From Prorocentrum cordatum (taxonomy: Eukaryota > Sar > Dinophyceae > Prorocentrales > Prorocentraceae), in NCBI GenBank assembly GCA_963575745.1, contig CAUYUJ010000946.1:43321-107320 (forward strand): 64,000 bases of DNA, given 5' to 3'. Made by a program: the position numbers and the translations under genes. The notes under the pieces were generated by a model. That model saw only the letters and a list, made by a program, of their open reading frames with translations, did no database searches and was not told the DNA's origin. Below, one piece after another: positions 16,331 to 63,235 of the stretch; the stretch's first letter is position 1, and every line of letters begins with the position of its first letter.

Positions 16331-16419
16331 GGCACGGGGGCAATGCCAGGCAGCGAACGAAAGCGACTCCACTGAGGCCACCGAGGCCAGGAAGCGAGGA
16401 GACCACTCGAGTCCCCCTG

Positions 16420-17395: not shown

Positions 17396-17465
17396 CTAAC
17401 CAACGAAAACCAAACAAAAACCAAACGAAAAACCACCAAAACCAACGAAAAACCCAACCGAAAGC

Positions 17466-17705
17466 AGTGTTGTGTGCAGTGTTGTGGTGTTGGCGGGCTG
17501 TGCGGTGTTGTGCGGTGCTGTGGCGGTGTTGTGCGGTGTTGCGCGGTGCTTTGGAGTGCTGTGCGGTGCGGTGCTGTGTGCTGTGCGGTGCTGTGCGGTG
17601 TTTTGCTGTGTGCGGTGTTGTGCGGTGTTGTGCGGTGTTTGTGGGAGTGCTGTGCGGTGCCTGTGCCGTGCCTGTGCCGTGCCTGTGTGGTGCTGTGCGG
17701 TGCCG
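17466..17705. repeat. 10-bp minisatellite GTGCGGTGYT (copy 1)
   Basis: Runs of GTGCGGTGTT and GTGCGGTGCT alternate with a few degenerate units, ending with GTGCCTGTGCC units. The second copy is at 24,435-24,665 and differs in unit number and order. It produces Cys/Val/Arg-rich false frames on both strands. Confidence 0.9.
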
Positions 17706-17845
17706 TTGTTTTTGCTCTTCTTTGTGCTATGCCATTCGATGGCGCACGCGTGCAGCAAAGTGTTGTTTTTCCGTAGCCTTCCTGGATCAGCTCATGTTTT
17801 TTTGCGCTCGTGCTGATTGTTACTGTATTGCGCACGTGTGGCAAG

Positions 17846-20800: not shown

Positions 20801-21551
20801 CGACGGCTCTCGCCACGGAGCAAATAATTGCTTGATCGATAGTCTGCTTCAGACAATGGTGGTAGCAAAGATTATCAAATTAGACACTAAACATACAAAG
20901 AATTTGCGTAGGGACGCTTGCGCTGGAGCACGTGCAGCATTACAATCAGAAATCAATGACCCTCATGGTTTCCTGGAGCATTTTAAACATGGTCCGGAAT
21001 TGTTTGAATATCTCTTGCGGCATTTCGAACAGCATGTTGCCTCAGATGCAAAACATCGTGGTGTCCTGCTTGTGGTGCATTCGCGCTTCGATACAGAGCA
21101 AATCCCTGGAGAACCACGTCGCTTGAGAGATGGCGATAATGATATAGTGTTACATGTTTTCAATAGGTCAGGAGAGGGAGTGAGTGGTTATCATTACGAT
21201 CCCTTATTTCCCCTTGCAATTCCTGCACCAGCTACTCCCAGAACTGCCAGCGATGCACGACATACCAAATCGCCTTCGCAATCGCCTGCAAAACCTATTA
21301 TAAAGGCTGCCGATGCTTTAATGCAGCAGCGCGCTTCTGGAGTACTCGCGAATTTGAAAAGTCAAGTCAGGGAGAGTGGCAGTCCAGTTTGTACTTTGAG
21401 GTATGCGTTGGACCGTTTCTTTTTCTCCGGAACGATGTCTGCGGCACGTACAGAGTTTCGGTCGTGCATCGAGCATTTGGCTCGCAGCGATCATCTGACG
21501 ATTAGGGCAAAAAAAACAAATCTAGCTGACTGGATTGCGTCGATTCCTTGA
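17846..21551 (+). pseudogene. MULE-type transposase with SWIM finger and OTU-like domain, copy 1
   Basis: The frame starts at the ATG at 17,846 (MLSWLNATRQ). It has a one-base loss near 18,158 and a frameshift near 19,590, so it is now in three pieces. Features in order: basic/acidic N-terminus; a Cys-containing N-terminal domain (CGKCPAEAKCKVKYH) like FLYWCH/FAR1-type DNA-binding regions; a MULE-like DDE core (YIAMSDFASKIVW about 19,005; FHSDFAKSSRKAIKDML about 19,255; then DLEHLERALL); a SWIM zinc finger (CTCELYC with CSH, 20,205-20,252); and a C-terminal region with GANNCLIDSLLQ (about 20,820) and SGYHYDPL (about 21,186). The last two resemble the Cys and His blocks of OTU peptidases. The ancestral protein was about 1,200 residues. 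No terminal inverted repeats were identified. Confidence 0.75.
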
Positions 21552-21714
21552 TTTCTTGAACTGCCTTGCCTGAGGAAGTGCTGCAAAATAGTATCCTCGC
21601 TTGTCTTATCCAGGAGCGGATCAGAGAAGAGGTGGGAGTAGTTGGGATGGATGCAGTGAGGAGCAGGGGGAAGACACCAGCAGATTGCGAAATGTTCAAC
21701 TGATATTGCGGTCT

Positions 21715-22828
21715 GCGGTCCAGGGCGTTTTTGTGCTCAGATTGCCGTTCTGGGCGTTTCCGTGCTCGTTTGCTGTTCCGAGCGATTTCGTGCTTTGTTC
21801 GCAATTTGGAGCGTTATCTGCTCAGAGTGCCGTTCTGGGCGTTCCGTGCTCATATTGCTGTTCTGGGGTTTTCGTGCTTAGATTGCCATCCTGGGCGCTT
21901 TCGTGCTCAGATTGCCGTCCTGTGCGTTTCCGTGCTCAGATTGCCGTTCTGGGCGTTTCGGTGCTCAGATTGCCGTTCTGGGCGTTTTCGTGCTCAGATT
22001 GCCGTTCTGGGCGTTTCCGTGCTCAGATTCCCGTTTTGGGCGTTTCCGTGCTCAGATTGCCGTTCTGGGCGTTTTGGTGCTCAGATTGCCGTTCTGGGCG
22101 TTTCCGTGCTCAGATTGCCGTTCTGGGCGTTTCGGTGCTCAGATTGCCGTTCTGGGCGTTTCCGTGCTTAGATTGCCGTTCTGGGCGTTTCCGTGCTTAG
22201 ATTGCCGTTTTGGGCGGTTTCGTGCTCAGATTGCCGTTCTGGGCGTTTCCGTGCTCAGATTGCCGTTTTGGGCGTTTCCGTGCTCCGATTGCCGTTTTGG
22301 GCGTTTCCGTGCTCCGATTGCCGTTTTGAGCGTTTCTGTGCCCGGATTGCCCTTCTGGGCGTTTCCGTGCTCAGATTGCCGTTCTGGGCGTTTCCGTGCT
22401 CAGATTGCCTGTCTGGGCGTTTCGGTGCTCAGATTGCCGTTCTGGGCGTTTTCGTGCTCAGATTGCCGTTCTGGGCGTTTCTGTGCTCAGATTGCCGTTC
22501 TGGGCGTTTTCGTGCTCAGAATGCTGTTCTGGGCGTTTCCGTGCTCAGATTGCCGTTCTGGGCGTTTTCGTGCTCAGATTGCCGTTCTGGGCGTTTCCGT
22601 GCTCAGATTGCCGTTCTGGGCGTTTCCGTGCTCAGATTGCCGTTCTGGGCGTTTCCGTGCTCAGATTGCCGGTCTGGGCGTTTCCGTGCCCAGATTGCCG
22701 TTCTGAGCGTTTTCGTGCTCAGATTGCCGTTCTGGGCGTTTCGGTGCTCAGATTGCCGTTCTGGGCGTTTCGGTGCTCAGATTGCCGTTCTGGGCGTTTC
22801 CGTGCTCAGATTGCCGTTCTGGGCGAAC
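21715..22828. repeat. 29-bp minisatellite (CGTGCTCAGATTGCCGTTCT unit), copy 1
   Basis: The 29-bp unit is CGTGCTCAGATTGCCGTTCT followed by GGGCGTTTC. About 38 units are present, degenerate at the left and nearly uniform at the right. The array is the last part of the duplicated unit and is cut at about 22,826 by the duplication junction. Because 29 is not divisible by 3, all three frames are open and encode the same 29-residue repeat, so the long frames here are not genes. Sister arrays: 28,695-29,819 and 39,339-39,508. Confidence 0.95.
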
Positions 22829-24434
22829 GGCCAACCACAAGAGCCGGCCAGGCCGCCAGGGCCACCCCACGAAGACCGCCGCCGACGTGCGCAAAACGCC
22901 CAACACAGAGGCGCTGCCCCCCCGCAGGAGCAACCGCAAACAGCCCGACCTGCGGGTGCACCCCAAACCGACGGCCTGGACCCACCGCAAACAGAACACG
23001 GCGCCGATCGACCTGCGGGTGCACCTCCCGACCTGGGCACGAACGCTGCTGCCCGCTCGCGGTGCTTTCCCGAGCTGCGGGAGCGAACACTGCCCGCCGG
23101 GGCCCCCCAGCCCGCGGAAACGAAACGACGCTGCCCGACCTGCGGGTGCCTTCCACGACCTGCGGGATTGGAAAAGGTGGTGCCCGACTTGCGGGTGCAC
23201 TTCCCGACCTGCGGGACCGAAAGGTGCTGCCCGACCTGCTGCGGGTGCCCCCCCCCCGACCTGCGGGACCGAAAACGGCGTCGCCCGACCAGCACAACGA
23301 TCCGCCGCGGCACGGGGGCAATGCCAGGCAGCGAACGAAAGCGACTCCACTGAGGCCACCGAGGCCAGGAAGCGAGGAGACCACTCGAGTCCTCCTGGAG
23401 ATTCCCCTGCCCCCCAAACCGTTGCACGATTTAGGGGCGATGAAATCCTTGTGCTCCTCGCCGATGCCCGCGGGCAGCTCTTCCTCGTCCGCCATGCCCT
23501 GCGGCTCGTCCTCCGCGTCCGCCACCACTGCGTCTCCCTCCTCCTGCTCCCTCCGCTCCTCGTCGGTCCTCTCCTGCTCCAGCTTTTGCGCTTGAGTTGC
23601 AGGCGCAGCTCTCTGCCTGGGTGCTCCAACAGGGGGCTGCGGCTCACGCGCCCGAGCGGCCTCACCTCACGCTCGCCTCCGTCTTCCTCCTCTTCGCTGG
23701 CTGGCTGGTTGGTGGCTGGGATGTGCGGTGGAGAGCGCTCCTCGCTGCGATGCTCCGATCCGTGTCCAGCACGTCGCAGCAGCGGGGCGACGCCCCGCAG
23801 CAGAGAGAATGTCCCGCAGGACGGGAGAGGCACTCCGCAGCGAGGCCGAGCTTCCCGCAGGACGGGAGGCAGCGCTGTGTCAGGAAGAGCCCCCGCAGGA
23901 CGGGAAGGCTTTCCGTCATGGAGCGCGCGGCGCCGCGCTGCCCACAGGATGGGAGAGCTGGCGGCGAACCAGCCGGCAGAAGGTTCCCATGTGGGAACGG
24001 TGCAACAGCCGTGCGGCAGGCTGCTCTGCACAGCTCCTGGATAAGGAGCGGGTCCCTGCCTGGATAAGGCATACCCACGGGTCGCCGGCGCTCCTCGTCG
24101 CCATTCTCCCAACAGGGCAAGCCCGAGGGTGCTCCAAGTGGGCTCCAAGCGGCCTTTCCGTTCCTGCCGGTGGCTGGCCAAGCGCACCAGCCGGCAGAAG
24201 GTTCCCAAGTGGGAATGGTTCATCAGCCGCGCGGCAGGCTGCTCTGCAAAGGTCCTGGATAAGGAGCGGGTCCCTGCCTGGATAAGGCATACCCACCAAG
24301 TCGCCGGCGCTCCTCGTCGCGATTCTCCCAGCCGGGCACACCCGTGGGTGCTCCAAGTGAGGGACCCCCCCCTAACCAACGAAAACAAAAAAAAACAACG
24401 AAAACCACAAAAACCAACGAAAACCCAAACGAAA

Positions 24435-24665
24435 GCAGTGTTGTGCAGTGTTATGCGGTGTTGTGCGGTGCTGTGCGGTGTTGTGCGGTGCTGTGCGGTG
24501 TTGTGCGGTGTTGCGCGGTGCTTTGGAGTGCTGTGCGGTGCGGTGCTGTGCGGTGCTGTGCGGTGCTGTGCGGTGTTTTGCGGTGCTGTGCGGTGTTGTG
24601 CGGTGTTGTGCGGTGTTTTGGAGTGCTGTGCGGTGCCTGTGCCGTGCCTGTGCCGTGCCTGTGTG
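24435..24665. repeat. 10-bp minisatellite GTGCGGTGYT (copy 2)
   Basis: It has the same unit as 17,466-17,705 with a different number and order of variants, showing that the array has changed since duplication. Confidence 0.9.
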
Positions 24666-24822
24666 GTGCTGTGCGGTGCCATTGTTTTTGTTCTTCTTTG
24701 TGCTATGCCATTCGATGGCGCACGCGTGCAGCAAAGTGTTGTTTTTCCGTAGCCTTCCTGGATCAGCTCATGTCTTTTTTGCGCTCGTGCTGATTGTTAC
24801 TGTATTGCGCACGTGTGGCAAG

Positions 24823-27800
24823 ATGCTGTCTTGGCTAAACGCTACCAGACAGCCCGACAGAAGTGAGCGAGACGAAGGATTTCTACAGCAATGGCTCATT
24901 TCGCACAACTGCTCGAGGGATACATTCAATCGGATTCGCTTTGAAGTTGCCGAGGAGGCCCGCGTCCGAGGCAGTGCGCCAAAGGATGCCTGTGGGCGGG
25001 CGGTTTCACTCGACCACGCCACTAAACACAAACTCCGAACCCAATACGGCTACAACAAGAGGCAGAGGGACGACGCTTTGCAAGCAAATCCACCACCACA
25101 TGTACCTGCACCTGCTCCGCCAGCATCCCCTGCAGATGACGAAGAGGAAGAGCAGCCACAACCACGGACAACCAAAAAAAGGAGGGTCTTGAGAAGCCCA
25201 TCGCCACAACAAGATCCGCCCGAACAGGCTCCAGCCCCCGATCTTGCTGCTTCTCCCCCGAGCCCCCAAGCCGAAACAGAAGCACGGGCACCGCAGGTCA
25301 GACCAGAAAAAAAGATTTGAGGTCATTCCAGATAGCCGAATCACAGCTACAGAAGGATTACAAAGAAACGCTTGGAAAAGGTGGGCCAAAAACAATGGCA
25401 CGAGTTTCAAACGCATTGATGGACCATGCAATGACAAGTTCTATGCAGTTTGTGGGAAATGTCCAGCGGAAGCAAAATGCAAAGTGAAGTGCCATCTTAT
25501 ACCAATTGGTGATGATACGTACCACGTTTTAAAGAATGCTGTAGAGCATGCTGGGGGACACCGACCAGCGCGCACTCCACAGAATCCGAGAGACGACGTA
25601 CCATCCATCACGAAAGAGCAGCTGCAGGAGATTGATAAGATTATGGCACAACACGGACCGCGAATCACGCCTGAGGCGGTTCACGATCGCATGTCTAGTG
25701 CTGCGCCAGGAGACGCCGTTCAAAGAGCTGTGCACAAACGCCGGAAAAGAGATGGAAGCAAAAAATCGTTCAAAGTGGAAGGATTGCAGGCTTGGTGCGC
25801 AGAGCGTTTTTTCTTAATCGATTCGGAACCCACGCCGCCAGCAAACAGATTGAGTTTGATTGTATTCAAAACTGCCGATGGGAATTGCCCAAGCATTTCA
25901 CCACAGTACGTAAACATACCTTTCACAATGTGGCATTTTGTCAACTACGCTGTCGAAGAAATCAGTACTGCCACTGGGTATATTGCGATGTCAGATTTTG
26001 CGTCGAAGATTGTTTGGCAGGGATACAAATTGGGCGCGCTGGGTGTTCTAATTTATCGTTATACGCCAGACGCCCGCCGTTACCGCAAGCACTTCGTGCC
26101 TCTGACCTTCATTTTATCAATGGAAGAGGAGGCTACAGACTACAGCACCATGCTCGACGTAGCAATTAAAGCTCTTATTGTGGAATTTCGGCAGCAGGGC
26201 AAAGAAATCCCCACTCCGCTATTCGCTCAATTCCATTCGGATTTCGCCAAGAGCAGTCGCAAGGCTATCAAAGATATGCTACCAAATACGCAGCATGTCA
26301 ACGATCTGGAGCACTTGGAGCGGGCGCTGCTGGACCACCAAAAGAGAGGAGAACCAAATTCACGTTTCCCTAGAGCGATTGAAAGCGTAATCGCGGCTTG
26401 TTTTCTGACCGCGTATATCTTTAATAATGCAGCTTTCCATTTATACTGGACTCAAACACTGAAATATTGGGAAGAGGAATTGAATGCAAAAGGATTCGCT
26501 AAGTACTTTCGTGACGAATATTTGCGTCCATTGGAACTTCCTGACGGCACAGTTCTCCTCAGAGCGTCTTGGTGGTGTGGCCCGCTTTCTTCTGTCGAGC
26601 CAGGTTATCCAAGCAGCCAAAACATGGTCGAATCTTTCATGGCCATGGTGCGGCGGCAGTTTGCGCAACAAGGCCACCATATAGATCCTGTTCCATTTTT
26701 GGATAAATTTGAGCAAAAATGCCGTCGATGGTGTACGACTCCAGGGGAAACTTTTTCCATAGCAGGACCGGGCCAGCGCTTGCACCACACACCTATTCCT
26801 TTGGATGACGCTTTACTCGACGGCGCTGGACGCACAATCAAGTTTGCAAAGAAAGTAATTCACATGCCTTCAGTGCGGCAAATAGCAGTGGCATTTACTC
26901 AAAGCGGGGGGCGGAATATTTTGGAATGGGAAGCGCCGAAAACAAAAGCACGCAAGGGAAGCAGATATTTCTACATGAATAAGGAAAAACAGATCCCTAT
27001 GGACACAGAAATGTGTGGTCATGTATGGAATCTGCAGCAGGCGGCAAACTTTGCTGATTTGGAAGCTCTTTGGAGGAAATACGGCATTTTGAAGCACCAG
27101 AACAGCAGAGACGAATTGATTTGGGAGAAGTTAAGCGAGCATTACCGTGATATCGTTCGTGTCAAGGCCACCGATGGTGAATTTACTTGCACGTGCGAGC
27201 TATATTGTGCGGAGAGCGTGTGCAGTCATATATACGGTGTGCGCGAATGTATATTTCAGGAAATTGTTCGGGACAGAGATCTGGCTATAGCATCTGGCGG
27301 GCGTAAAGGAGCACCTCCAACTAGAACTGCCGCAGTGGGCGCCCGTTTAACGCAGGAAGCAGCAAATGAGGCAGCAGAGGCGAAAGCACGTGCAAAGAAA
27401 AAGACAACTTCCAAATATGAACTGAGAATCCCCCAGGGCAGCCCCAGAGGACCCAAGTACATTTCAAGGGGAAAGTTTTGGAGCATTGAGGGATTCACTC
27501 AAAGATACTCTTGGTCCTTTGCTGGTTGGTGGGATCGAAGGAGAAATCGCTCTCTTCTTCCATTGGAATGCCTTACCTCCGCAACCCTGGCAGTATGTGG
27601 AATGGCGGGGGTGGGTCAGACTTTTGAGCGCAGCTGCGAACGAACAGGACCCAGATAAGCACCCCGAGATTCTCGAAGGCTACATCATCAATTTCTTCAG
27701 AATCCTAACAGACAACCTGGACTTGAAATTGAAGACGGATCGTGAGGTTGAGTCCGAATTGAAAAAAAACGATTCCAGGTTGGCGACGGCTCTCCCCACG

Positions 27801-28534
27801 GAGCAAATAATTGCTTGATCGATAGTCTGCTTCAGACAATGGTGGTAGCAAAGATTATCAAATTAGACACTAAACATACAAAGAATTTGCGTAGGGACGC
27901 TTGCGCTGGAGCACGTGCAGCATTACAATCAGAAATCAATGACCCTCATGGTTTCCTGGAGCATTTTAAACATGGTCCGGAATTGTTTGAATATCTCTTG
28001 CGGCATTTCGAACAGCATGTTGCCTCAGATGCAAAACATCGTGGTGTCCTGCTTGTGGTGCATTCGCGCTTCGATGCAGAGCAAATCCCTGGAGAACCAT
28101 GTCGCTTGAGAGATGGCGATAATGATATAGTGTTACATGTTTTCAATAGGTCAGGAGAGGGAGTGAGTGGTTATCATCACGATCCCTTATTTCCCCTTGC
28201 AATTCCTGCACCAGCTTCTCCCAGAACTGCCAGCGATGCACGACATACCAAATCGCCTTCGCAATCGCCTGCAAAACCTATTATAAAGGCTGCCGATGCT
28301 TTAATGCAGCAGCGCGCTTCTGGAGTACTCGCGAATTTGAAAAGTCAAGTCAGGGAGAGTGGCAGTCCAGTTTGTACTTTGAGGTATGCGTTGGACCGTT
28401 TCTTTTTCTCCGGAACGATGTCTGTGGCACGTACAGAGTTTCGGTCGTGCATCGAGCATTCGGCTCGCAGCGATCATCTGACGATTAGGGCAAAAAAAAC
28501 AAATCTAGCTGACTGGATCGTGTCGATTCCTTGA
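24823..28534 (+). pseudogene. MULE-type transposase with SWIM finger and OTU-like domain, copy 2
   Basis: This is the duplicate of 17,846-21,551. It is intact where copy 1 is broken (near 18,158 and 19,590). It carries its own breaks: an extra A in the A-run near 25,313, an extra C near 27,430 and two extra A in the A-run near 27,770. The longest piece runs in frame from 25,317 to 27,658 and covers the DDE-like core and the SWIM finger. The OTU-like part is in the last piece (27,815-28,534), and its first block is changed (GSPHGANNC versus GSRHGANNC in copy 1). Neither copy can make the full protein, but their breaks do not overlap. The parent was therefore open when duplication occurred, or nearly so. 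Confidence 0.75.
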
Positions 28535-28694
28535 TTTCTTGAACTGCCTTGCCTGAGGAAGTGCTGCAAAATAGTATCCTCGCTTGTCTTATCCAGGAGC
28601 GGATCAGAGAAGAGGTGGGAGTAGTTGGGATGGATGCAGTGAGGAGCAGGGGGAAGACACCAGCAGATTGCGAAATGTTCAACTGATATTGCGG

Positions 28695-29819
28695 TCTGCG
28701 GTCCAGGGCGTTTTTGTGCTCAGATTGCCGTTCTGGGCGTTTCCGTGCTCGTTTGCTGTTCCGAGCGATTTCGTGCTTTGTTCGCAATTTGGGGCGTTAT
28801 CTGCTCAGAGTGCCGTTCTGGGCGTTCCGTGCTCATATTGCTGTTCTGGGGTTTTCGTGCTTAGATTGCCATCCTGGGCGCTTTCGTGCTCAGATTGCCG
28901 TCCTGTGCGTTTCCGTGTTCAGATTGCCGTTCTGGGCGTTTCGGTGCTCAGATTGCCGTTCTGGGCGTTTTCGTGCTCAGATTGCCGTTCTGGGCGTTTC
29001 CGTGCTCAGATTCCCGTTTTGGGCGTTTCCGTGCTCAGATTGCCGTTCTGGGCGTTTTGGTGCTCAGATTGCCGTTCTGGGCGTTTCCGTGCTCAGATTG
29101 CCGTTCTGGGCGTTTCGGTGCTCAGATTGCCGTTCTGGGCGTTTCCGTGCTTAGATTGCCGTTCTGGGCGTTTCCGTGCTTAGATTGCCGTTTTGGGCGT
29201 TTTCGTGCAAATATTGCCGTTCTGGGCGTTTCCGTGCTCAGATTGCCGTTTTGGGCGTTTCCGTGCTCCGATTGCCGTTTTGATCGTTTCTTTTGTGCCC
29301 GGATTGCCCTTCTGGGCGTTTCCGTGCTCAGATTGCCGTTCTGGGCGTTTCCGTGCTCAGATTGCCGGTCTGGGCGTTTCGGTGCTCAGATTGCCGTTCG
29401 GGCGTTTACGTGCTCAGCTTGCCGTCTGGGCGTTTCTGTCCTCAGATTGCCGTTCTGGGCGTTTTCCGTGCTCAGAATGCTGTTCTGGTCGTTCGTGGGC
29501 CGTGCTCAGATTGCCGTTCTGGGCGTTTCCGTGCTCAGATTGCCGTTCTGGGCGTTTCCGTGCTCAGATTGCCGTTCTGGGCGTTTCCGTGCTCAGATTG
29601 CCGTTCTGGGCGTTTCCGTGCCCAGATTGCCGTTCTGAGCGTTTTCGTGCTCAGATTGCCGTTCTGGGCGTTTCGGTGCTCAGATTGCCGTTCTGGGCGT
29701 TTCGGTGCTCAGATTGCCGTTCTGGGCGTTTCCGTGCTCAGATTGCCGTTCTGGGCGTTTCCGTGCTCAGATTGCCGTTCTGGGCGTTTCCGTGCTCAGA
29801 TTGCCGTTCTGGGCGTTTC
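28695..29819. repeat. 29-bp minisatellite, copy 2
   Basis: It is the same unit as 21,715-22,828, with extra irregular units around 29,285-29,500. At 29,819 the array is interrupted inside a unit (GGGCGTTTC then ATGAAG) by the YR retrotransposon and continues at 39,339. Confidence 0.93.
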
Positions 29820-50939: not shown

Positions 50940-51030
50940 ATCCAGGTTTTGGACGCTTACAAGTACCTCGTAGAGCTCTTCGCCATCGATGAGCTAGAGG
51001 AATTCCGGCGCGGGGTGGAGCTAGTTCCCG
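50940..51030 (+). repeat. CTCGTAGAGCTCTTCGxCAT repeat (encodes a VELFxIDELEEF peptide)
   Basis: The block CTCGTAGAGCTCTTCGCCAT then CGATGAGCTAGAGGAATTCC and GGCGCGGGGTGGAGCTAGTT recurs at about 48,640-48,690, here, 54,025-54,095 (inverted), 55,645-55,715 (inverted) and 56,525-56,625. In one frame every copy can be read as YLVELFGIDELEEFRRG. The frame is kept in most copies, but no longer protein is seen around it. Confidence 0.7.
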
Positions 51031-51229: not shown

Positions 51230-52480
51230 ACCAACATTCTGACTCATAGTGAATATGTTTTGCCCTCTGAATGCGACAAGCGGACGGGTCTGATCAGACC
51301 GAGTTCAGACCTCTCAATGCGACAGGCGGGCGCGTCTGATGTCTGCGAATCGACTCATGTTTACCAGCCCTGCAGCCCCCCTACAGCCCGAGTTAAGTGC
51401 AGAAAACCGACAGCATCTCTCAGGATATAATAGTTTCGCAGACCTGTTTCGAGCAGCAGACCAAGTCTGAGCTCTCGAATCGACCAACGAACGCGCCTGA
51501 TGTGTGCAAATCGATTTCTATGACCCACTGCACTGTAGCCCTCCCCGAGCACAAGTTCAGTGCAGAAAATTGAGAGCACTTTTCACGATGATTCGGACAA
51601 TACGAATAGTTTCGCGAACCTAGCTCGGGCAGCAGGCCGAGTTCAGAGCTCTCGATACAAACGCGCCCGATAATTCACAATCGATTTCTGTGACTGTAGG
51701 CTCTGTAGCTGCCTACAGCGAGTTAAGTACAGAGAATACCGAGAGTGTTTGCCAAGATGACTCGAATAATACGAATAGATTTGCGGACCTAGCTCGGCTA
51801 GCAGACCGAGTTCAGACCTCTGGAGTCGAGAGGCGAACGCGCCTGATGATGCTGAGTGCGATAGGCGTGCTTACCAGCACTCTAGCTGCCCCGCAGCTCG
51901 AATTAAGTACAAAATACCCACCACGCGTATCAAGTTGATTCGAATAGTACGAATAGGTTTGCGGACCTAGCTCGGCTAGCAGACCGAGTTCAGAACTATG
52001 GATTCAACGGGCGAACGCGTCTGATGATTCTGAGGGCGATAGGTGTGCTTACCAGCACTGTAGCTGCCCTAGAGCTCGAGTTAAGTAGAAATTACCGACA
52101 GCGCGTATGCAGTTGACTTGAATGATACGAATAGGTTTGCGCAGCTACCTCGGCTAGCAGACCGAGTTCGGACCTATGGATTCAACAGGCGAACGCGCAT
52201 GATGATTCTGACTGCGATAGGTGTGCTCACCAGCACTATAGCTGCCCTACGGCTCGATTCAAGTAGAAAATACCGACAACGCAAATCAAGTCCACTCGAA
52301 TAATACGAATAGGCTTGCGGACCTAGCTCGGCTAGCAGACCGAGTTCAGACCTATCGATTCAACAGGCGAACGCGCCTGATGATTCTGAGCGCGATAGCT
52401 GTGCTTACCAGCTCTGTAGCTGTCTTACAGCTCGAGTTAAGTACAAAATACCAACAACGCGTATCAAGATGACTCGAAAC
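51230..52480. repeat. 178-bp satellite, block 1
   Basis: The landmark TTGCGGACCTAGCTCGGCTA recurs (with changes) at 51,781, 51,959, 52,137 and 52,315, exactly 178 bp apart. Each unit has a CTCGG/CCGAG hairpin around CTAGCAGA, an AACAGGCGAACGCGCCTGAT part and CAGCTCGAGTTAAGTAC. The left units are more diverged. No gene. Confidence 0.93.
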
Positions 52481-52715
52481 GGTCGATCCCGCCAGTGTGC
52501 TTTTGGGCCTTCAAAGTTACCCGATCGAGCTGAGATCAAGATGGCGAGCGGGAATAAGATCGAATATCACGGGAGAAAATACTAGAGCTCTAACGAATTG
52601 TTGAATTTCGAGAACATAATTTTCAACCGACCAAAAGTTGCGAAAAGTTCAGTTCTTTTTTTTCGAGCCAACTAGCTCTCCAGCGCGCCGGAATTACTCT
52701 TAGCTTCCAGCTACT
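52480..52715. repeat. Dispersed repeat S (GGCCTTCAAAGTTACCCGATC), copy 1
   Basis: It begins GACTCGAAACGG at the end of a 178-bp block. It contains CTTCAAAGTTACCCGATCGA, CAAGATGGCGAGCGGGAATA and CTAGAGCTCTAACGAATTG. Further copies: 53,548-53,695, 55,163-55,310 and, inverted, 62,917-63,065 beside the LINE. It always follows a satellite block or stands inverted to one. Confidence 0.8.
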
Positions 52716-52879: not shown

Positions 52880-53550
52880 AATCGAGCTCGAGTATCAAAC
52901 CGAGTTCAGACCTCTGAATGCGATAGGCGGACGCGTCTGATTTCTGCGGATCGATTCCTGTGATTACCAGCTCTGCAGCCCCCCATACAGCCTGAGTTAA
53001 GTGCAGAAAACCGAGAGTAACTCGAATAATACAACAGTTTCGCGGATCTCGCTCGAGCAGGAGACCGTGTTCCGAGCTCTCGGTTCGACGAACGGACGCG
53101 CCTGATGTCTCGAAATCGATTCCTGTGACCAGCAGCACTGTAGCCCTCCCCCAGCACGATTTAAGTACAGAAAACCGAGAGCACTTCTCCAGATGACTCG
53201 AACAATACCAATAGGTTCGCGAACCTAGCTCGGGAAGCAGGCCGAGTTCAGAGCTCTTGATTCAACAGACGAACGCGCCTGATAATTCTCAATCGATTTC
53301 TGTGATTATCAGCCTGTGGCTGCCCTACAGATCGAGTTAAGTACGAAAAACCGAGAGCGTCTGCTACAATGACTCGAATAATACGAATAGGTTTGCGACC
53401 CTAGCTCGGCTAGCAGACCGAGTTCAGACCTCTGGATTCAACAGGCGAACGCGCCTGATCATTCTGAGTGCATTAGCTGTGCTGACCAGCTCTGTAGTTG
53501 TCCTGAAGCTCGAGTTATCTTGAGAAAACCGACAGCGCGTATCAAGATGA
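52880..53550. repeat. 178-bp satellite, block 2
   Basis: Same unit as block 1; ends in GACTCGAAACGGCCG and dispersed repeat S. Confidence 0.9.
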
Positions 53551-53702
53551 CTCGAAACGGCCGTTCCCGCCTGCCTGCTTTTTGGCCTTCAAAGTTACCC
53601 GATCGAGCTGAGATCAAGATGGCGAGCAGGAATAAGATCGAATATCATGAGAAAAAATACTAGAGCTCAACGAATTGTCAAATTTCGAGAACAAAACTGG
53701 CG

Positions 53703-54319: not shown

Positions 54320-55165
54320 TCGAGTATCAAACCGAGTTGAGACCTCTGAATGCGACAGGCGGGCGCGTCTGATGTCTGCGAATCCACTCATGTGATTCCC
54401 AGCACTGAAGCCCCCCTACAGCCCGAGTTAAGTGCAGAAAACCGACAGTATCGATTCGAATAATATAATAGTTTTGCGAACCTAGTTCGAGCAGCAGACC
54501 GAGTTCCGAGCTCTGGAATCGACCGAAAGACGCGCCTGATGTGTGCAAATCGATATATGTGACCTGCAGCACTGTAGCCCTTCCCCAGCACGAGTTGAGT
54601 GCAGAAAATTGAGAGCATGTCACAAGATCATTCGGACAATACGAACAGTTTCGCGAACCTAGCTCGGGCAGCAGGCCGAGTTCAGAGCTCTCGGTACGAT
54701 AGACGAACGCGACTGATAATTCCCCAGCGATGTCTGTCACAATGAGCCCTGTAGCTGCCCTACAGCTCGAGTTAAGTACAGAAAACCGAGAGCGTCTATC
54801 AAGATCACTCCAATAATACTGATAGGTTTGCGGACCTAGCTCGGCTAGCAGGCCGAGTTCAGACCTCTGGATTCAACAGACGAACGCGCGTGATGATTCT
54901 GAGTGCGATAGCTGTGCTTACAAGCACTGTAGCTGCCCCAAAGCTCGAGTTAAGTACAGAAAACCGAGAGTGTCTATCAAGATGACTCGAATAATACAAA
55001 TAGGTTTGCGAACCTAGCTCGGCTGGCAGACCGAGTTCAGACCTCTGGATTCAACAGGCGAACGCGCGTGATAATTCTGAGTGCGATAGCTGTGCTCACC
55101 AGCTCTGTAGCTGCCCTACAGCTCGAGTTAAGTACAAAATACCGATAGCGCGTATCAAGATGACT
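54320..55165. repeat. 178-bp satellite, block 3
   Basis: Same unit as blocks 1 and 2, about five units, ending in GACTCGAACCGGCCG and dispersed repeat S. Confidence 0.9.
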
Positions 55166-55314
55166 CGAACCGGCCGTTCCCGCCCGTGCGCTTTTTGGCC
55201 TTCAAAGTTACCCGATCGAGCTGAGATCAAGATGGCGAGCGGGAATAAGATCGAATAATGGGAAAAAATACTAGAGCTCTAACGAATGGTCAAATTTCGA
55301 GAACGAAACTGGCG

Positions 55315-56524: not shown

Positions 56525-57479
56525 CTCGTAGAGCTCTTCGGCATCGATGGGCTAGAGGAATACCTCGTAGAGCTTTTCGGCATCGATGAGCTAGAGGAAT
56601 TCGGGCGCGGGATGGAGCTCGTAACTCGTAGAGCTTCCCTTAGCTAGTTATAGCTGGAAGCTAAGAGTAATCCGGCGCGCTGGAGAGCTAGTAACTCGTA
56701 GAGCTTCCCTTAGCTAGGTATAGCTGGAAGCTAAGAGTAACTCGTAGAGCTTCCCTTAGCTAGTTATAGCTGGAAGCTAAGAGTAATTCCGGCGCGCTGG
56801 AGAGCTAGTTGGCTCGGAAAAAAAGAACTGAACTTTTCACAACTTTTGCTCGGTTGAAAATTTCCCGGATAGCTCCTTGGAGAGCTGAGAATTTCAGATA
56901 AGAAGCCGGCGGTGGGTGGTGAGGAGCACACGCCCACCTTCGCCGGTCCACGATTCTCGCAGCGACTCGCCGGAACTTGCAGCGGGTCCGGGAGCGTGGC
57001 TTCCTAGCGTTTCCCAATACGCGTGCCTCCAGGGTGCGCGAAGCGCTTCGGCAGAGCTTCGGAAGCGCTTCGGCAGTTCTTCCAGGCTCCTAGGCAGTTT
57101 CCCGGATAGCTCCTTGGAGAGCTAAGGGTTTAAGATTAGAAGCCTGACGGTGGTGGTGCCCGCCAGGAGCTCCTCCACGGCGGTCCACGCTCGTCGCAGC
57201 GGGTTGCCGGAGTTCGCAGCGTGTCCGGGAGCGTGGCTCCCTAGCGTTTCCCAATACGCGTGGCTCCAGGGTGCGCGAAGCGCTTCGGCAGAGCTTCGGA
57301 AGAGCTTCGCGAGTTCTTCCAGGCTCCTAGGCAGATCTTCCTGGCGAGCTTAGCAGGGCCCCACGCATCGTAAACAACGCCCCTGCAAGCGTCTCCTGCG
57401 ATGTTTCCAGCGTCCCGCGCATCGTTTCGGGCGGCCTGGCGTTCCGGGCTTGGCTTCGCTATCCGGGTTTTGGACGCTT
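56525..57479. repeat. Mosaic of AGCT-rich, VELF and GAAGCCGG repeats
   Basis: It contains two VELF blocks (56,525-56,625), three AGCT hairpin units (56,625-56,815) and two to three copies of the GAAGCCGG repeat with a CACGATTCTCGCAGCG or CACGCTCGTCGCAGCG block. It ends at GGTTTTGGACGCTTACAAGT, the LINE target site. No gene. Confidence 0.7.
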
Positions 57480-57490
57480 ACAAGTATGTT
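57480..57490 (+). repeat. Target-site duplication of the LINE, left copy
   Basis: ACAAGTATGTT, identical to 62,906-62,916. The uninterrupted parent of this flank (GACGCTTACAAGTA) is seen at 50,952. Confidence 0.88.
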
Positions 57491-57511
57491 CCGTAGCCAT
57501 TTTGGCTCAAG
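57490..57511 (+). other. Dinoflagellate spliced leader at the 5' end of the LINE
   Basis: A full 22-nt match to the known dinoflagellate spliced leader (core CCGTAGCCATTTTGGCTC, then AAG). The first base (T) overlaps the last base of the target duplication. The leader is normally added by trans-splicing to the 5' end of nuclear mRNAs. Its presence exactly at the insertion boundary means it was part of the reverse-transcribed RNA. GCGTCTGGATCAAG follows, partly repeated once. Confidence 0.93.
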
Positions 57512-57873
57512 GCGTCTGGATCAAGGCGTCTGGATCCCACAGGCGTCTAGTGTCTGGGGGGGGGGCGCGTCGCCGCGGGCGGCGGCGCGGCAGCCATCGC
57601 TGCCTTCATCGTCTTCTTCGGGTTCAGCAAGATCGAGGTCAGCTAGGCCGCTGCACTTGTTATTGTTATTGTGTGTGCCAGGCCGCCTGCACTTGTTTTT
57701 GTTATTGTTACTGCTGTAATTGTCTATTTTTCCTCTCTCTTGGGAAGACGGAGTGCTGGGGATCCGACTTCAGTCACGCGGACTGGGACTATCTAGCCAG
57801 ACAGGTCGGGACACCTCGAAGTGACAGGAGAGCTGTTATTTGTGTGCCATCGCTCACACCAACAGTACCGTTT

Positions 57874-57960
57874 GTGCAGGGTGAAGGTTACGATTTCAAT
57901 ATCTTGCGTAACCACTTTGTGCAGGGTGAAGGTTACGATTTCAATATCTTACGCAGCCAC
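57874..57960. repeat. 45-bp tandem duplication in the LINE leader
   Basis: GTGCAGGGTGAAGGTTACGA plus its continuation occurs at 57,874 and 57,919. It lies between the spliced leader and the ORF1 ATG. Confidence 0.8.
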
Positions 57961-57969
57961 AAAAGAAAG

Positions 57970-59069
57970 ATGGCTGCTGCAGGTTCTTCAGTTTCAGGTG
58001 TTGCACCAGCGATGCCAGCAGGTTCTTCAGTTTCAGGTGCTCCAGGCTTGCATGCGACGGGCCAGGACATGACAATTGATGATGGGGGTGGGGCGTTTGC
58101 TAGAGCTGTCCGTGCTCGTAATGTCAAAGGAGCAGGGAAAGGAGAAGGAGGAGGTGCGGGACAAACGTTGGGTGCGAAGGAGGTTGCCCAGGAAGCAGGC
58201 CTTGACATTGAACAGATGTTTCGATCCATCATGACGGGACAACAGACTATGACGGCAGACATGCAATCGTTCAGGAACACTATTCGTACGGAAATGGACG
58301 GTCTGAAAACATCTCTGGACTCTAGGGTATCAAAAACAGAATCGGCGATCCAGGACCTCACCAATGAAGTTCAGAAGCTCAAGCAGGGGGACGGGCTGTC
58401 GGTAGCAAGCGGATCCACGAAGGCGGGTACGGACAGGCACGACCCTGGTTGGAGTCCACGTTATGTTGAGTTCAAAGGGTGGGTTTCAAGGGAGGGATGG
58501 AGGAACCGTGAGATACGTCAGCGGGAGGCTCTTTCACAGGAGGCACTGACGACGGCGATGAATGGTCTCATTGACTCTAAACAAATCGATGCTACACAGA
58601 GGATGGCACTGGACTTGGATCGGACGGTTCAGGAGAATACTGGTAGATATGGCCGTATACGAGGGGTAGGATCTATTTCAAGCCAGGCACATCCGCTGAG
58701 ATCCTATGGGAAGCGAAACGTGTGTGGGAGAATGACTACAGGCGGGGACTCACTTCACTGCCGGCCAATGTGCGATTCCAAGTTGAATGCCAACCATGGA
58801 AGGTAGAACATGTTCGGGCAGTAGGACGGTTTCAAGCACTATTCTCTGATATCAAGAAAAATGCGACGGGTATTCTTCGAGGTGAGACGGGTCCGCCAAT
58901 GACATATATGTGGTATATGCCGAATGCTGATGATACTACACAAAAGACTCTGATTGCAGAATGGGGACCGACAAAAGGATGGAACCTCTATGGTGATAAT
59001 TTGACACACGTTGAGCCCGATATTAATCAGGTGCAGTTTCTTCAGACACTACGGTGCCCGAATCATTGA
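57970..59069 (+). pseudogene. LINE ORF1 (coiled-coil protein), one frameshift
   Basis: The start is taken at the ATG at 57,970 (MAAAGSSVSGVAP). The frame is open further up, but that part has the composition of a leader. After a Ser/Gly/Ala region with a short repeat (AGSSVSG twice), residues about 90-170 form a likely coiled coil (heptads in MDGLKTSLDSRVSKTESAIQ and LTNEVQKLK). A frameshift near 58,650-58,680 moves the rest to the frame 58,722-59,069 (GLTSLPANVRFQVE to VQFLQTLRC). No zinc knuckle is seen. By analogy with LINE ORF1 proteins it would bind the element RNA. It ends at TGA 59,067-59,069, in the frame of ORF2. Confidence 0.65.
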
Positions 59070-62000
59070 CGGGGCGGTAGGGCTGCGACAGAGACCGTGG
59101 TCGCAACCTGGAATGTGCAGAAAATATCCGACGGTCAAGTACCCAACCTGGTCGCTGCATGTGAAGCCAGGTCAATTCAAATGGTGTGCCTGCAAGAGTG
59201 TGAGCATACCAGTGCAAATACTTTTAACAGATGTGGATGGGAGATTCACTATAGCTCCTGCTCCAAGGCGGCGGTTGCATGGTGCAGGGATTGGGCACCA
59301 CATGTGATTGCTCGACGGAGTGGGGTACGATTTGCGTGTGTTGAATTCAGGGGTGCTCTAGTTACATCAGTGTATCTACCATGTGTGATGCGTGATGTGG
59401 ACCACTTGGGGGAATATTTAGATGTACTTACTAAGTGCAGTGTTACTATGTTTCAAACTACACAGGCTGGAGTCATACCATGGGTGGGGATGGATGCTCA
59501 GACGGAACTTGAACCAGATATGCTGGGAATGACGGGAGGAGGTCTTATGCAGGTGGACGGGAGGAGGGAGGAGGCGAACTACCATGCAGAGAGGAGGGAC
59601 ATGCTTATGAGGTTCATGAGTACTTGGGGGATCTGTGCGGCGAACACATATGGAGACCGACGTATCACACATATACCGTACTGTTCCACACATGTGCAGC
59701 GTGTGCTTGACTATATACTCATCCCTACACGTTGGTGCGCGGATGAGGCAAGAGCTCACCAGGAAATGAGATGCCAGGTCCAGTTTGTGGAACCCATCAA
59801 AGCTACGCCAGGTATACGTGCAAAAGCCAGTGCCTATAGTGATCACGCTCTGGTCTGGGTAAATCTCAAGACGACGGAGATCAGGCGCCCAGCTTTGCCA
59901 CCCCGCCCTGTGTCCATGGTTGGCTGGCAGCCGACGGATGACACGGCGAGGAACATGTTTCGTGTGCTTGCGGATGTGTCGATTGAGGGACTTGCATCGG
60001 ACACGGTAGGGACGGACCTGCAGCAGGTCGGACGGGTACTCTTGGAGACGGCAAAGCTTGTGGACCACACTAAGGGGCGCCCCAACTGCAAACCTATTCA
60101 GAGGCCCAGGGAGCTCATAGAGGTGGAGTCTGCCATCAGGCGTGGGGCCCTTGGGAATACTCGTAAACAACTGCTGCGTAGGAGGAAGACCCTTAGGAGA
60201 CAGCATAGGAGGAACCAACTCCTGCAGGACCACAGGGGATCCAGTAAGACCTCACGGTGTATCCTCAAGGAGCTGGAGTGTGAGGGTGTGCTGACAATGG
60301 ACAGGACTAGGTGGAGTACGGAAATCACTAGGTATGCGACGGCGTCTTACACGAACTCGGAGGAGGAAAAACGGACTTTGGAGGCCTTCCAGGAACTCAG
60401 ACACAACGACCGTGGGGTGGAGGGAAGAGTCATCACGATGGGCATGCTCATGCAGGCTCGTGCGTCTTTGAAGCCGGGCACGGCGCCTGGCAGCGATGGA
60501 GTCGTTGCGGAGGTCATTCGTGAGTTGCCGTGGAGGAGCCTGCAGTTTGTGCGGCGTGCTTTCCAGAGGATTTTCGAGCAGGGAGCCTCCAGCCCTGAGA
60601 CGTGGAGGCAGCTCAGTATCCAACTTGTGCCGAAGATGCGGGATGCTACACGACTCTCCAACACCAGAGGGATTTGCCTGATCAGTGTGATGAGTAAATG
60701 GTACATGGCATGTGTGTTGCAGTTTATTGATGCATTTCCTGTGAACCGACGGTTGTGCACATACGGATTTGAAAAGGATCAGAAGGTTACTAACGTCACG
60801 GCACCACTATCACATCTTACTAGACATGCAAATGTGTGGGGGAAGGCGGAGTCCATGCACGTGGGAGTCTTGGACATACACAAAGCTTTCGATAATGTCA
60901 CACTGCACACTATCATCAAGGCCATGTTGCACCTCAAGTACCCCGTGTGCCTCATCAGAGCCATTGTGGAGCCCATGCTGGATAACATTGCTACCTTTGA
61001 GTTTCAGAACGTGTGCGGCGATGAGGTGAGATACAACAAATCGGTCCGAACGGGAGGTAAGGAGGGACCCATACTTTTCAATATTGTCTTGGAGGCCATC
61101 TGGGGATCTGTGATTCAGACTTGGGATACCTTAGGATACGGTGTCCGTCTGGAAGGGGAGGGGACGGACGGTGCTCTTGTACATCACTTCTTGTGGGCGG
61201 ACAATGTTACGCTCTGTGCCGCATCGCAGCTCCAGCTACAACAGATGATCGGTATGATGACGGTGACACTCAGACGGGCGGGGATGGACTGGAAGGAGGA
61301 CTCTTTGGCGTATGTACTTTTTGGCCAGACGTACACAGGTGGCGATCCGCCGCTGCTCTGCCCGCTCTCACCAGCCATCTGTGCGATTTCTGGAGATGAG
61401 GATCTCCCAGAGCACTTGCGCTCGACTGTCGTTATGCCGAGGAAGGAGGAGGTGGAGGTACTAGGAGTGAAGCTCAGCTCGGAAATCAAGGGATATCACG
61501 GCTTGTATCATCGACTGGAGAAAGGGAGGAAGGCCTATTTTGCTGACATCCAGTTTTATCGCTCCAGATCGGTCTCACTCAAAGAGAAGTTTCGCAGGTA
61601 TGCCGCTCGCGTGCAGTCTGTGGTGTACCACGGATGTATAGGCTGGCCGTGCAATCTACGACTGCTGGAGAGGATTAAGGTATGGGAGGGGAGGTGTCTC
61701 AACGGTATGCGAGGATTACACAAGAGGGAGGAGGAGACGTGGGAGGAGTTCAGGGACAGGACCACACCGAAGTCATACGAGCTATTCTTGCAGGCTGGCC
61801 ACTGCAGTCTCCTAGAGAAGGTGGTCCGAGCCAATTTCGAGTTTGCGCTGGAGCTGGCCCAGTTTCATGATCGGGCCTTCGCCTCCACGGACTTGCGTGG
61901 GGCACGAGCCTGGCGTCAGACGCTGCAGGCCATGTTACACTGTGCGGGGGAATGGTCAATACGGAGGGACACACTTGTATCCATGTTCACGGGAGCCAGG

Positions 62001-62852
62001 AGGAGGGAAGGTACGAGGAGAGTGGGAGGAAGAGCGCATGCAAGCACTGACAGCTGGCATTGTCTTATGCTGGCGGCGAGTGGTAATTTACGCTGGTTCA
62101 GCATCAAGTGGAATGCGACGGACTGGTGGAATGTAGTTGCGTGCATGATAAAAATACAGCCTCGATGGGAGCCCATCTTCAGGAAACCGCCCGGTGCTCC
62201 TTGCCCTGTGGATACGTGGGACTCCCCTGAGGACTCCGACAGGCTCGCTCGTAGGATTGCCCACGGATATAACAACGAAACTGTCTGGCAGGAGGGCTCG
62301 GAGAACTCATTGTTGGTTGAAATGACTGGTGATAGTATGTGTGTGGTGAACTGGGCCCGAGGGATCTGGGAATGCCGTGATCGTTCGTACCGCAGGAGAG
62401 TGCACGGTCTACAAAACGATATGAATCAACTAGCGGAGGATTACGATATCAGGTGTGCCACTGTAGGGACGGATCCGTGGAAGCATATCTACAGAGAGTT
62501 CAATTGTGTTGCGGATGAGTTGACTTGGGAGGCGAGGAGGGGAAGGACGGGAAGATGGATTGACTTCAGATATTTACGACAACAGAGACATTGTATCAAG
62601 CGTATCCGTGGAGGATGGGACGGTGGCGTGAGTGTTGAAGGCTCTGCTCTAGGTTGCTATGTGGAGGTCTCATTTGGGGACAACCACTGGCGACGAGTTT
62701 TCCAGGAGGCTTCTTTACTCCCTCTGGGGGCCACTGTTACAGATAGCGAGCTCACAGCTTGTGAACGCCTGCTCCAAGGTGTTCGGCAGATTATCTCTGA
62801 GATCCTCGGGCCTCCAACCCCAAAGAGGTTGAGAGGGCGTGAGGGACCCTAG
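59070..62852 (+). CDS. LINE ORF2: endonuclease, reverse transcriptase and permuted RNase H
   Basis: The frame is open from 59,070, directly after the ORF1 stop and in the same frame. The first non-ATG start is GTG 59,097 (residue 1 here, 1,251 residues); the next ATG is inside the endonuclease. Endonuclease (1-255): TWNVQ, LQE (Glu34), GMDAQ (Asp133), LDYI (Asp205), SDH (Asp249). RT (about 440-730): LVPKMRDATRLSNTRGI, VLDIHKAFDNV (Asp593), GGKEGPILFNIVL, and HFLWADNVTL, where Asp702 is followed by Asn703 instead of Asp. C-terminal RNase H (about 1,075-1,225): GDSMCVVNWARG (Asp1079), HIYREFNCVADEL (His1130, Asp1140), then WDGGVS (Asp1175) and TDSELTACERLL (Glu1218). The last two blocks come first in ordinary RNase H, so the order is permuted. 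No gag-type zinc knuckle follows RT. Confidence 0.88.
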   Translation, partial: RGGRAATETVVATWNVQKISDGQVPNLVAACEARSIQMVCLQECEHTSANTFNRCGWEIHYSSCSKAAVAWCRDWAPHVIARRSGVRFACVEFRGALVTSVYLPCVMRDVDHLGEYLDVLTKCSVTMFQTTQAGVIPWVGMDAQTELEPDMLGMTGGGLMQVDGRREEANYHAERRDMLMRFMSTWGICAANTYGDRRITHIPYCSTHVQRVLDYILIPTRWCADEARAHQEMRCQVQFVEPIKATPGIRAKASAYSDHALVWVNLKTTEIRRPALPPRPVSMVGWQPTDDTARNMFRVLADVSIEGLASDTVGTDLQQVGRVLLETAKLVDHTKGRPNCKPIQRPRELIEVESAIRRGALGNTRKQLLRRRKTLRRQHRRNQLLQDHRGSSKTSRCILKELECEGVLTMDRTRWSTEITRYATASYTNSEEEKRTLEAFQELRHNDRGVEGRVITMGMLMQARASLKPGTAPGSDGVVAEVIRELPWRSLQFVRRAFQRIFEQGASSPETWRQLSIQLVPKMRDATRLSNTRGICLISVMSKWYMACVLQFIDAFPVNRRLCTYGFEKDQKVTNVTAPLSHLTRHANVWGKAESMHVGVLDIHKAFDNVTLHTIIKAMLHLKYPVCLIRAIVEPMLDNIATFEFQNVCGDEVRYNKSVRTGGKEGPILFNIVLEAIWGSVIQTWDTLGYGVRLEGEGTDGALVHHFLWADNVTLCAASQLQLQQMIGMMTVTLRRAGMDWKEDSLAYVLFGQTYTGGDPPLLCPLSPAICAISGDEDLPEHLRSTVVMPRKEEVEVLGVKLSSEIKGYHGLYHRLEKGRKAYFADIQFYRSRSVSLKEKFRRYAARVQSVVYHGCIGWPCNLRLLERIKVWEGRCLNGMRGLHKREEETWEEFRDRTTPKSYELFLQAGHCSLLEKVVRANFEFALELAQFHDRAFASTDLRGARAWRQTLQAMLHCAGEWSIRRDTLVSMFTGARRREGTRRVGGRAHASTDSWHCLMLAASGNLRWFSIKWNATDWWNVVACMIKIQPRWEPIFRKPPGAPCPVDTWDSPEDSDRLARRIAHGYNNETVWQEGSENSLLVEMTGDSMCVVNWARGIWECRDRSYRRRVHGLQNDMNQLAEDYDIRCATVGTDPWKHIYREFNCVADELTWEARRGRTGRWIDFRYLRQQRHCIKRIRGGWDGGVSVEGSALGCYVEVSFGDNHWRRVFQEASLLPLGATVTDSELTACERLLQGVRQIISEILGPPTPKRLRGREGP

Positions 62853-62862
62853 GGACTCTGCA

Positions 62863-62892
62863 CGGCTAGGGCGCACGCGCCCTGTGTAGCCG
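62863..62892 (+). other. Stem-loop at the 3' end of the LINE
   Basis: CGGCTAGGGCGC, loop AC, then GCGCCC, bulge TGTG, TAGCCG. The two arm pairs (CGGCTA/TAGCCG and GGGCGC/GCGCCC) give a strong stem 13 bp from the element end. Several LINEs use a 3' stem-loop as the RT recognition signal. Confidence 0.75.
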
Positions 62893-62905
62893 ACCCCAAC
62901 ACCCA

Positions 62906-62916
62906 ACAAGTATGTT
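62906..62916 (+). repeat. Target-site duplication of the LINE, right copy
   Basis: ACAAGTATGTT, identical to 57,480-57,490, directly after the CACCCAA end. Confidence 0.88.
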
Positions 62917-63235
62917 CTCGAAATTTGACCATTCGTTAGCTCTAGTATTTTTTCCCGTGATATTCGATCTTATATCCGCTCGCCATCTTGATCTCAGCTC
63001 GATCGCGTAACTTTGAAGGCCAAAAAACACACTGGCGGGAACGGCCGTTTCGAGTTATCTTGATACGCGCTGTAGAGCTTCCCTTAGCTAGTTATAGCTG
63101 GAAGCTAAGAGTAATTCCGGCGCGTCCCAGAGCTAGTTGGCAAGAAAAATCTCGACGGACCTTTTGGTGACTTTTGGTCGGTTGAAAATTTCGTTCTCGA
63201 AATTTGACCATTCGTTAGAGCTCTAGTATTTCCCA
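62917..63235 (-). repeat. Dispersed repeat S, inverted copy, with AGCT unit
   Basis: This is the reverse complement of the repeat at 55,163-55,310 (CCATTCGTTAGCTCTAGTAT, CTCGCCATCTTGATCTCAGC). An AGCT hairpin unit at 63,070-63,125 and a second short S edge at 63,190-63,235 follow. Together with the plus copies left of the LINE it forms a long inverted repeat around the insertion. Confidence 0.8.

What the first reader, a model, noticed from the sequence alone, without database searches (positions are those of the whole stretch)
57480..62916. LINE inserted full-length starting exactly at the spliced leader
The sequence shows an 11-bp direct repeat (ACAAGTATGTT) at both ends. The first base after the left copy begins the dinoflagellate spliced leader, and the LINE body follows. 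It is known that dinoflagellate mRNAs receive this leader by trans-splicing and that retroposed mRNAs keep leader relics. Inference: an autonomous LINE has its own RNA trans-spliced and copies that RNA to the very 5' end. The leader would then be regained in each cycle and could supply the 5' cap and translation signal. The degraded GCGTCTGGATCAAG repeat behind it may be an older leader.
Basis: partly seen in the sequence, partly recalled or inferred. Interest (0 to 1): 0.9.

Follow-up and report, generated by a model that had tools for sequence, protein, structure and literature searches.

The report
Jumping gene copied with borrowed leader
A young jumping gene (LINE) in a dinoflagellate alga was pasted into the genome together with the short leader that the cell normally splices onto its messages, which suggests that such elements are copied from fully processed RNA and may use the host leader in place of a front end of their own.

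Summary
Confirmed: a 5.4-kb LINE (57490/57491-62905) starts exactly with the dinoflagellate spliced leader (SL), between 12-bp (not 11-bp) direct repeats. Paralogous flanks in the window show the repeat is a real target-site duplication (TSD). The genome (4.13 Gb, probably Prorocentrum cordatum) holds 242 matches to the family's 3' end, 171 to its body start and 29 SL-to-body joins (25 with at most one mismatch). ORF2 is uninterrupted in 34 of 37 scored copies and under purifying selection. Best reading: the LINE RNA is trans-spliced and copied by target-primed reverse transcription almost to its cap. Full-SL copies are scattered on the tree and use two acceptors. Corrections: full SL with a clean TSD is the exception; of 9 full-SL copies with both flanks known, one (the window) has it, one has a TSD behind 69 nt of filler, seven have none. 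The 14-nt repeat carries leader-like bases but fits slippage better than a stacked older leader. One copy extends upstream of the SL with its own repeats. At least 7 of 18 other sampled SL loci look like unrelated LINEs, so the habit seems general. That the leader is regained in each cycle is likely, not shown; no RNA was seen.

The parts
57480..57491 (+). left copy of the 12-bp target-site duplication ACAAGTATGTTC (last one or two bases shared with the leader)
57490..57511 (+). dinoflagellate spliced leader, T + CCGTAGCCATTTTGGCTCAAG, first bases of the element
   Evidence: T before the 21-mer in 18 of 18 sampled SL loci
57512..57525 (+). 14-nt unit GCGTCTGGATCAAG; unit number varies between copies
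57526..57969 (+). 5' untranslated region, starting GCGTCTGGATCCC (the n=0 acceptor side)
57970..59069 (+). ORF1 (366 aa in 21 of 27 copies that cover it; the window copy has a 1-nt deletion near 58650 and stops at aa 278)
59067..59069 (+). UGA, followed by CGG, in frame between ORF1 and ORF2; same in 29 of 29 aligned copies
59070..62852 (+). ORF2, 1260 aa
59103..59846 (+). endonuclease-like part (ATWNVQ ... LQECE ... DYILI ... SDH), by motif and a weak alignment
   Evidence: not found by Pfam
60654..61472 (+). reverse transcriptase domain (RVT_1, E 6.3e-14)
62862..62905 (+). 3' hairpin and unpaired tail ACCCCAACACCCA, no poly(A)
62906..62917 (+). right copy of the target-site duplication
50951..50965 (+). 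paralogous left flank without insert
52454..52636 (-). paralogous right flank without insert (others at 53532-53693 and 55147-55304)

Best explanation
A recent insertion of a target-preferring LINE whose RNA had received the host spliced leader by trans-splicing. (1) A LINE copy is transcribed from somewhere upstream (inferred). (2) The SL is spliced to an AG just before GCGTCTGGATC, at one of two neighbouring sites (junctions shown in DNA, splicing inferred). (3) The LINE protein nicks a host repeat at GGACGCT^ACCAAGT and copies the RNA from its hairpin-plus-ACACCCA end (target and 3' end shown, enzymology inferred). (4) The copy runs to or nearly to the capped end; the 5' end is then joined through a few matching bases, either with a TSD (window) or by joining the SL at host CTCT^CCG with about 16 nt of target lost (junctions shown). 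(5) Slippage or jumps between TGG or CGT motifs make 14-nt repeats from the end of the leader (inferred from spacing). The leader is most likely regained by trans-splicing in new rounds rather than carried in DNA (inferred, about 0.6).
For: Exact SL, TSD and supported empty site. 29 genome places join SL to the body start, 0 in the reversed control. Four full-SL copies sit apart on the tree, each next to relatives with other 5' ends; window, L017, L014 and L018 have identical 5' UTR stretches but different 5' ends, as do L024 and L032. Two acceptors: n=0 in 4 and n=1 in 8 of 12 further full-SL places. No upstream sequence common to the copies; similarities among flanks fit the target repeat. 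133 places have ACCAAGT right after the 3' end, background 12 of 259,798 strand positions. ORF2 uninterrupted in 34 of 37, nonsynonymous 249 against synonymous 777. At least 7 of 18 sampled SL loci look like other LINEs.
Against: No RNA was seen. Only 4 of 29 assessable copies have the full SL; 6 show only A-type 14-mers and no SL. Most full-SL copies lack a TSD. C14857 has 14-mers upstream of its SL. A mismatch test that seemed to favour regain did not survive a check (and full report).
Confidence: 0.75

Rival explanations
1. The SL was captured once and is now a DNA-encoded first exon of the element; new copies inherit it by transcription from at or above it, without new trans-splicing, and many copies lose it by incomplete copying.
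For: SL with n=1 is found in several lineages of the family; copies without SL could be short at the 5' end or rearranged by slippage; no SL-plus-relic copy was seen among the full-SL places read, although such relics are common elsewhere (2,747 places).
Against: Two acceptors, n=0 and n=1, among full-SL copies; other unrelated LINEs and a host-gene copy carry the same SL at unrelated junctions, which needs trans-splicing anyway.
Confidence: 0.2
2. Ordinary by-product: every dinoflagellate mRNA gets an SL, so LINE RNA does too; the leader has no role in the element's life and is simply copied when the enzyme reaches the cap.
For: SL-tagged host retrocopies are known (PMC6050394 part 1; PMC12014239 passages), and L076 looks like one.
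Against: Nothing here excludes it; it shares the mechanism of the best explanation and denies only a function. The absence of any common sequence above the leader, and the joining of SL CCG to target CTCT^CCG, would be a coincidence under it.
Confidence: 0.45
3. Chance match or assembly artefact.
For: Repeat-rich assembly; two pairs of loci look duplicated (L089 and L091; L092 and L017).
Against: 0 expected SL matches, 0 reversed-control joins, different flanks in more than ten copies.
Confidence: 0.01

Closest known systems
SL-tagged retrogenes of dinoflagellates (PMC6050394 part 1 of 3 read; PMC12014239 passages)
   Same: SL or its relic at the 5' end of a reverse-transcribed RNA
   Different: Those are host genes; here the copied RNA encodes the LINE's own RT, in a young multi-copy family
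Trypanosomatid L1Tc/ingi LINEs (PMC8190864, PMC4748587, PMC4035085: starts of abstracts in listings)
   Same: LINEs in hosts that trans-splice their mRNAs
   Different: Those are described with an internal Pr77 promoter, an HDV-like ribozyme and unspliced transcripts; here the SL is in the insert and no ribozyme was found
SLACS/CZAR/CRE elements of trypanosomatids (recalled)
   Same: LINEs next to SL sequence
   Different: Recalled to insert into SL RNA genes; here the SL is inside the insert and the target is another host repeat
Human L1 and R2-type LINEs (solved RT structures)
   Same: RT domain similarity (E 1.7e-10 to 5e-8); recalled: template jumping and microhomology at 5' ends
   Different: No poly(A) as in L1; leader at the 5' end; ADN in place of the second catalytic Asp motif

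Membership tests
Non-LTR retrotransposon (LINE) | reverse transcriptase of the LINE type | tested here: met
   RVT_1 6.3e-14; L1 ORF2p and R2-type RTs in PDB
Non-LTR retrotransposon (LINE) | insertion with target-site duplication and variable 5' truncation | tested here: met
   TSD of 10 nt or more next to the element in 10 of 28 copies with a scripted result, with filler in further copies, none in 11 of 28; deep truncation in 4 of 29
APE-type LINE | N-terminal apurinic-type endonuclease in ORF2 | tested here: inconclusive
   motifs ATWNVQ, LQECE, DYILI, SDH in 29 of 29, weak alignment to P0001 (E 0.001); no Pfam match, unusable model
SL-tagged dinoflagellate retrocopy | DinoSL at the 5' end of the inserted copy | tested here: met
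SL-tagged dinoflagellate retrogene | derived from a host gene | tested here: not met
   it encodes its own RT
SL-gene-targeting LINEs (SLACS/CZAR/CRE) | insertion into the SL RNA gene | tested here: not met
   target is GGACGCT^ACCAAGT in a host repeat; target-to-SL similarity reached by 95 of 5000 dinucleotide shuffles
L1Tc/ingi type | HDV-like ribozyme at the 5' end | tested here: not met
   no such Rfam match at 57380-58000 with E up to 5
trans-spliced transcript | SL joined to the body in RNA, not in DNA | not testable with these tools
   no RNA reads at hand

The most novel reading that the evidence does not exclude
Dinoflagellate LINEs have given up a 5' end of their own: they are transcribed by read-through of host units, the trans-spliced leader alone fixes cap, start and 5' boundary in every cycle, and its UCCG end then serves as landing sequence at the target. 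Trans-splicing would be a working part of the LINE life cycle, and many SL tags counted as host retrogenes would be LINEs.
Probability: 0.3. Interest if true: 0.82.

Novelty: new variant of a known kind. Interest (0 to 1): 0.62.

Why it matters
How a LINE keeps a promoter and an exact 5' end is a general problem. A LINE whose 5' end comes from the host's trans-splicing would be a third solution beside internal promoters and ribozymes, could help explain the many SL-tagged copies in dinoflagellates, and bears on retrogene counts that use the SL as a tag. It contrasts with passages that call Symbiodiniaceae LINEs remnants of an ancient expansion (PMC8045281) or non-active remnants (PMC10235124). 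I found no paper that joins LINE 5' ends with DinoSL in searches, of which I opened only a few papers.

Tried and rejected
Ribozyme at the 5' end: none. A stem-loop behind the UGA as support for read-through: not better than shuffles (z 0.65 and -0.52). SL-versus-body mismatch bias as proof of regain (1 of 12 mismatches in the SL, P 6.5e-5): dropped, because by my arithmetic about 4 two-mismatch joins are expected by chance among 33,832 SL matches, and two of the four one-mismatch joins are C-type units. Target resembling the SL: reached by 95 of 5000 dinucleotide shuffles and 77 of 4000 random window pieces, so weak. Structure of the endonuclease region: pLDDT 35, unusable, so no fold search was made. 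ORF2 in viral contigs: 2 pattern matches, none confirmed. Protein collection: 4 distant hits. A count of empty target sites did not complete. C637: the fetched 3' stretch lies inside the element, so its TSD is unknown.

Full report
Observation. The flanks belong to local host repeats: GGACGCTTACAAGTA occurs uninterrupted at 50951, and GTTCTCGAAATTT with its continuation at 52636, 53693 and 55304 on the minus strand, so host sequence covers both halves of ACAAGTATGTTC and the insertion duplicated it. The window lies in G000, 4.128 Gb in 21,875 contigs; its contig C1 has 3,562,531 bases. Prorocentrum cordatum CCMP1329 is published with 4.15 Gb, 22,724 scaffolds and a longest scaffold of 3.56 Mb (PMC10666404, passages). 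The species is therefore an inference.

Family. A protein search scored 37 matches (of 11,264 first-look candidates; a lower bound), all over residues 1-1260 at 99-100 % identity, 34 of 37 without internal stop. I read the 5' ends of the window copy and of 29 others; the remaining 7 were not aligned. ORF1 is 366 aa in 21 of 27 copies that cover it; the window copy is one of the 6 others. Between the window and 28 aligned copies ORF2 has 249 nonsynonymous and 777 synonymous codon differences, so the family was recently active under selection. Genome-wide, 242 places match the 3' end (one mismatch allowed) and 171 the body start (two allowed), 0 in the reversed controls.

5' ends. Of 30 copies one (L041) is cut by an N gap. 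The 29 others, grouped by eye: full SL 4 (window, L017, L024, L029); SL short by some bases 2 (L039, L014); TTTTGGCTCAAG, where TTTTGG may be host, 3 (L021, L023, L027); starting at or near GGCTCAAG 6 (L022, L025, L028, L031, L034, L038); with a C-type unit GCGTCTGGCTCAAG 2 (L033, L036); A-type units only 6 (L016, L018, L026, L030, L032, L035); just inside this zone 2 (L037, L040); deeply truncated 4 (L013, L015, L019, L020). I saw no upstream sequence common to the copies; among 24 flanks 144 of 276 pairs share some similarity, 7 of the matches in the same register, which I read as the shared target repeat. On the tree the four full-SL copies sit apart. The 5' UTR stretch is identical in the window, L017, L014 and L018, and in L024 and L032, although their 5' ends differ.

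Joins of SL and body. 29 places in the genome join the SL to GCGTCTGGATC with up to 2 mismatches: 21 exact, 4 with one, 4 with two; control 0. Twelve of them, besides copies known already, were read: n=0 (SL directly on GCGTCTGGATCCC) in L083, L084, L085 and L088, n=1 in the other 8. L092 has the flank of L017, and L091 that of L089, so 10 of the 12 are new and independent.

Junctions with the host. Scripted and read results for 28 of the 30 copies: TSD of 10 nt or more next to the element in 10 (window, L016, L018, L026, L030, L032, L033, L035, L037, L040); a repeat with filler in 5 (L013, L022, L024, L027, L034; 8 nt in L022); unclear because the target is tandem in 2 (L031, L036); none that I accept in 11 (L014, L015, L017, L019, L020, L021, L023, L025, L028, L029, L038). 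For 9 full-SL copies both flanks are known (window, L017, L024, L029, C2447, C2965, C13350, C19849, C20811). Two have a TSD: the window, and L024 behind 69 nt of filler. Five (L017, L029, C2447, C19849, C20811) join the leader at or next to host CTCT^CCG while the other side begins ACCAA, so about 16 nt of target (CCGGGTTTTGGACGCT) are lost or replaced. C2965 and C13350 have no TSD and a smaller loss. C14857, whose first SL base differs, has TSD ACCAAGTGGACAC, then three 14-mers, then the leader from CGTAGCC on; a jump at CGT explains it. Copies that start in the 14-mers often have a clean TSD. This fits joining of the 5' end through a few matching bases (inference).

The 14-mer. Its last nine bases differ from the leader's last nine by one (reached by 4 of 20,000 composition shuffles in register, by 215 of 20,000 at any offset); C-type units match all nine. 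TGG in the leader and TGG in the body are 14 nt apart, the length of the unit. Slippage from one TGG to the other makes this unit.

Target and 3' end. ACCAAGT stands at the 3' junction in 18 of 29 copies, allowing for a few extra tail bases (by eye), and right after the 3' end at 133 places in the genome, one mismatch allowed, control 0; its background is 12 of 259,798 strand positions. The window's target is a variant of the same site. The 3' end has a hairpin and a short tail (z -2.0, 5 of 200 shuffles as stable).

Wider pattern. The genome has 33,832 SL matches with up to 2 mismatches, 9 in the reversed control, and 2,747 matches to SL plus relic. I read 18 exact SL loci from the listed places: the first 8, all on C1, and 10 plus-strand ones from other contigs. 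LINE-like: L077 (PF03372 1.3e-9), L071 (PF03372 0.0019, below its cut-off; RT-like motifs by eye), L072, L073 and L079 (tblastn to L071), L008 (tblastn to L077), and L004 (endonuclease-like start, by eye only): 7 of 18. L076 matches GOST_TM and looks like a host-gene copy. The other 10 are undetermined; for 6 of these only 1.5 kb was read. The base before CCGTAG is T in 18 of 18, and 15 of 18 follow a triplet-rich stretch (period-3 score at least 0.54, the 95 % value of the control).

Mechanism and limits. Trans-splicing of the LINE RNA is the simplest account of one host leader on several unrelated LINEs and at two acceptors in this family. That it is regained in every cycle follows only if source copies lack a usable start above it, which I could not test. 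Whether the leader serves the element as cap, start signal or landing sequence is open. Papers were seen as passages unless stated otherwise; PMC6050394 was read in part 1 of 3. Zhang 2007 and Slamovits and Keeling 2008 were seen only as cited; SLACS/CZAR/CRE, target-primed reverse transcription, L1 and R2 behaviour and the meaning of LINE motifs are recalled.

Noticed in passing
window 61197-61205: The RT motif where a second catalytic Asp is expected (xADD) reads ADN in 29 of 29 aligned copies, although ORF2 is under purifying selection; unexplained.
   Followed up: partly
window 59067-59072: ORF1 and ORF2 share a frame and are parted only by UGA CGG, same in 29 of 29 copies. The first Met of ORF2 is residue 38, behind the endonuclease start ATWNVQ at residue 12, so read-through or a non-AUG start is likely.
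   Followed up: partly
L004-L011, L071-L080: 15 of 18 sampled SL loci follow a triplet-rich stretch, mostly CCT: another LINE group of this genome may prefer triplet repeats.
   Followed up: partly
L076 461-1432: SL followed by a GOST-domain protein (6.3e-10): probably a host-gene retrocopy beside a triplet repeat.
   Followed up: no
L002, L003, L001: Contigs in two Dehalococcoidia MAGs and one IMG/VR viral contig carry the exact SL; the MAG contigs may be misbinned dinoflagellate DNA.
   Followed up: no
window 15676-15696: SL-like stretch with 3 mismatches, 0 expected by shuffling; perhaps an old leader relic.
   Followed up: no
window 15848-22825 and 22827-29815: Tandem 7-kb duplication, 98.1 % identical, each copy ending in an array of about 29-nt repeats.
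   Followed up: no
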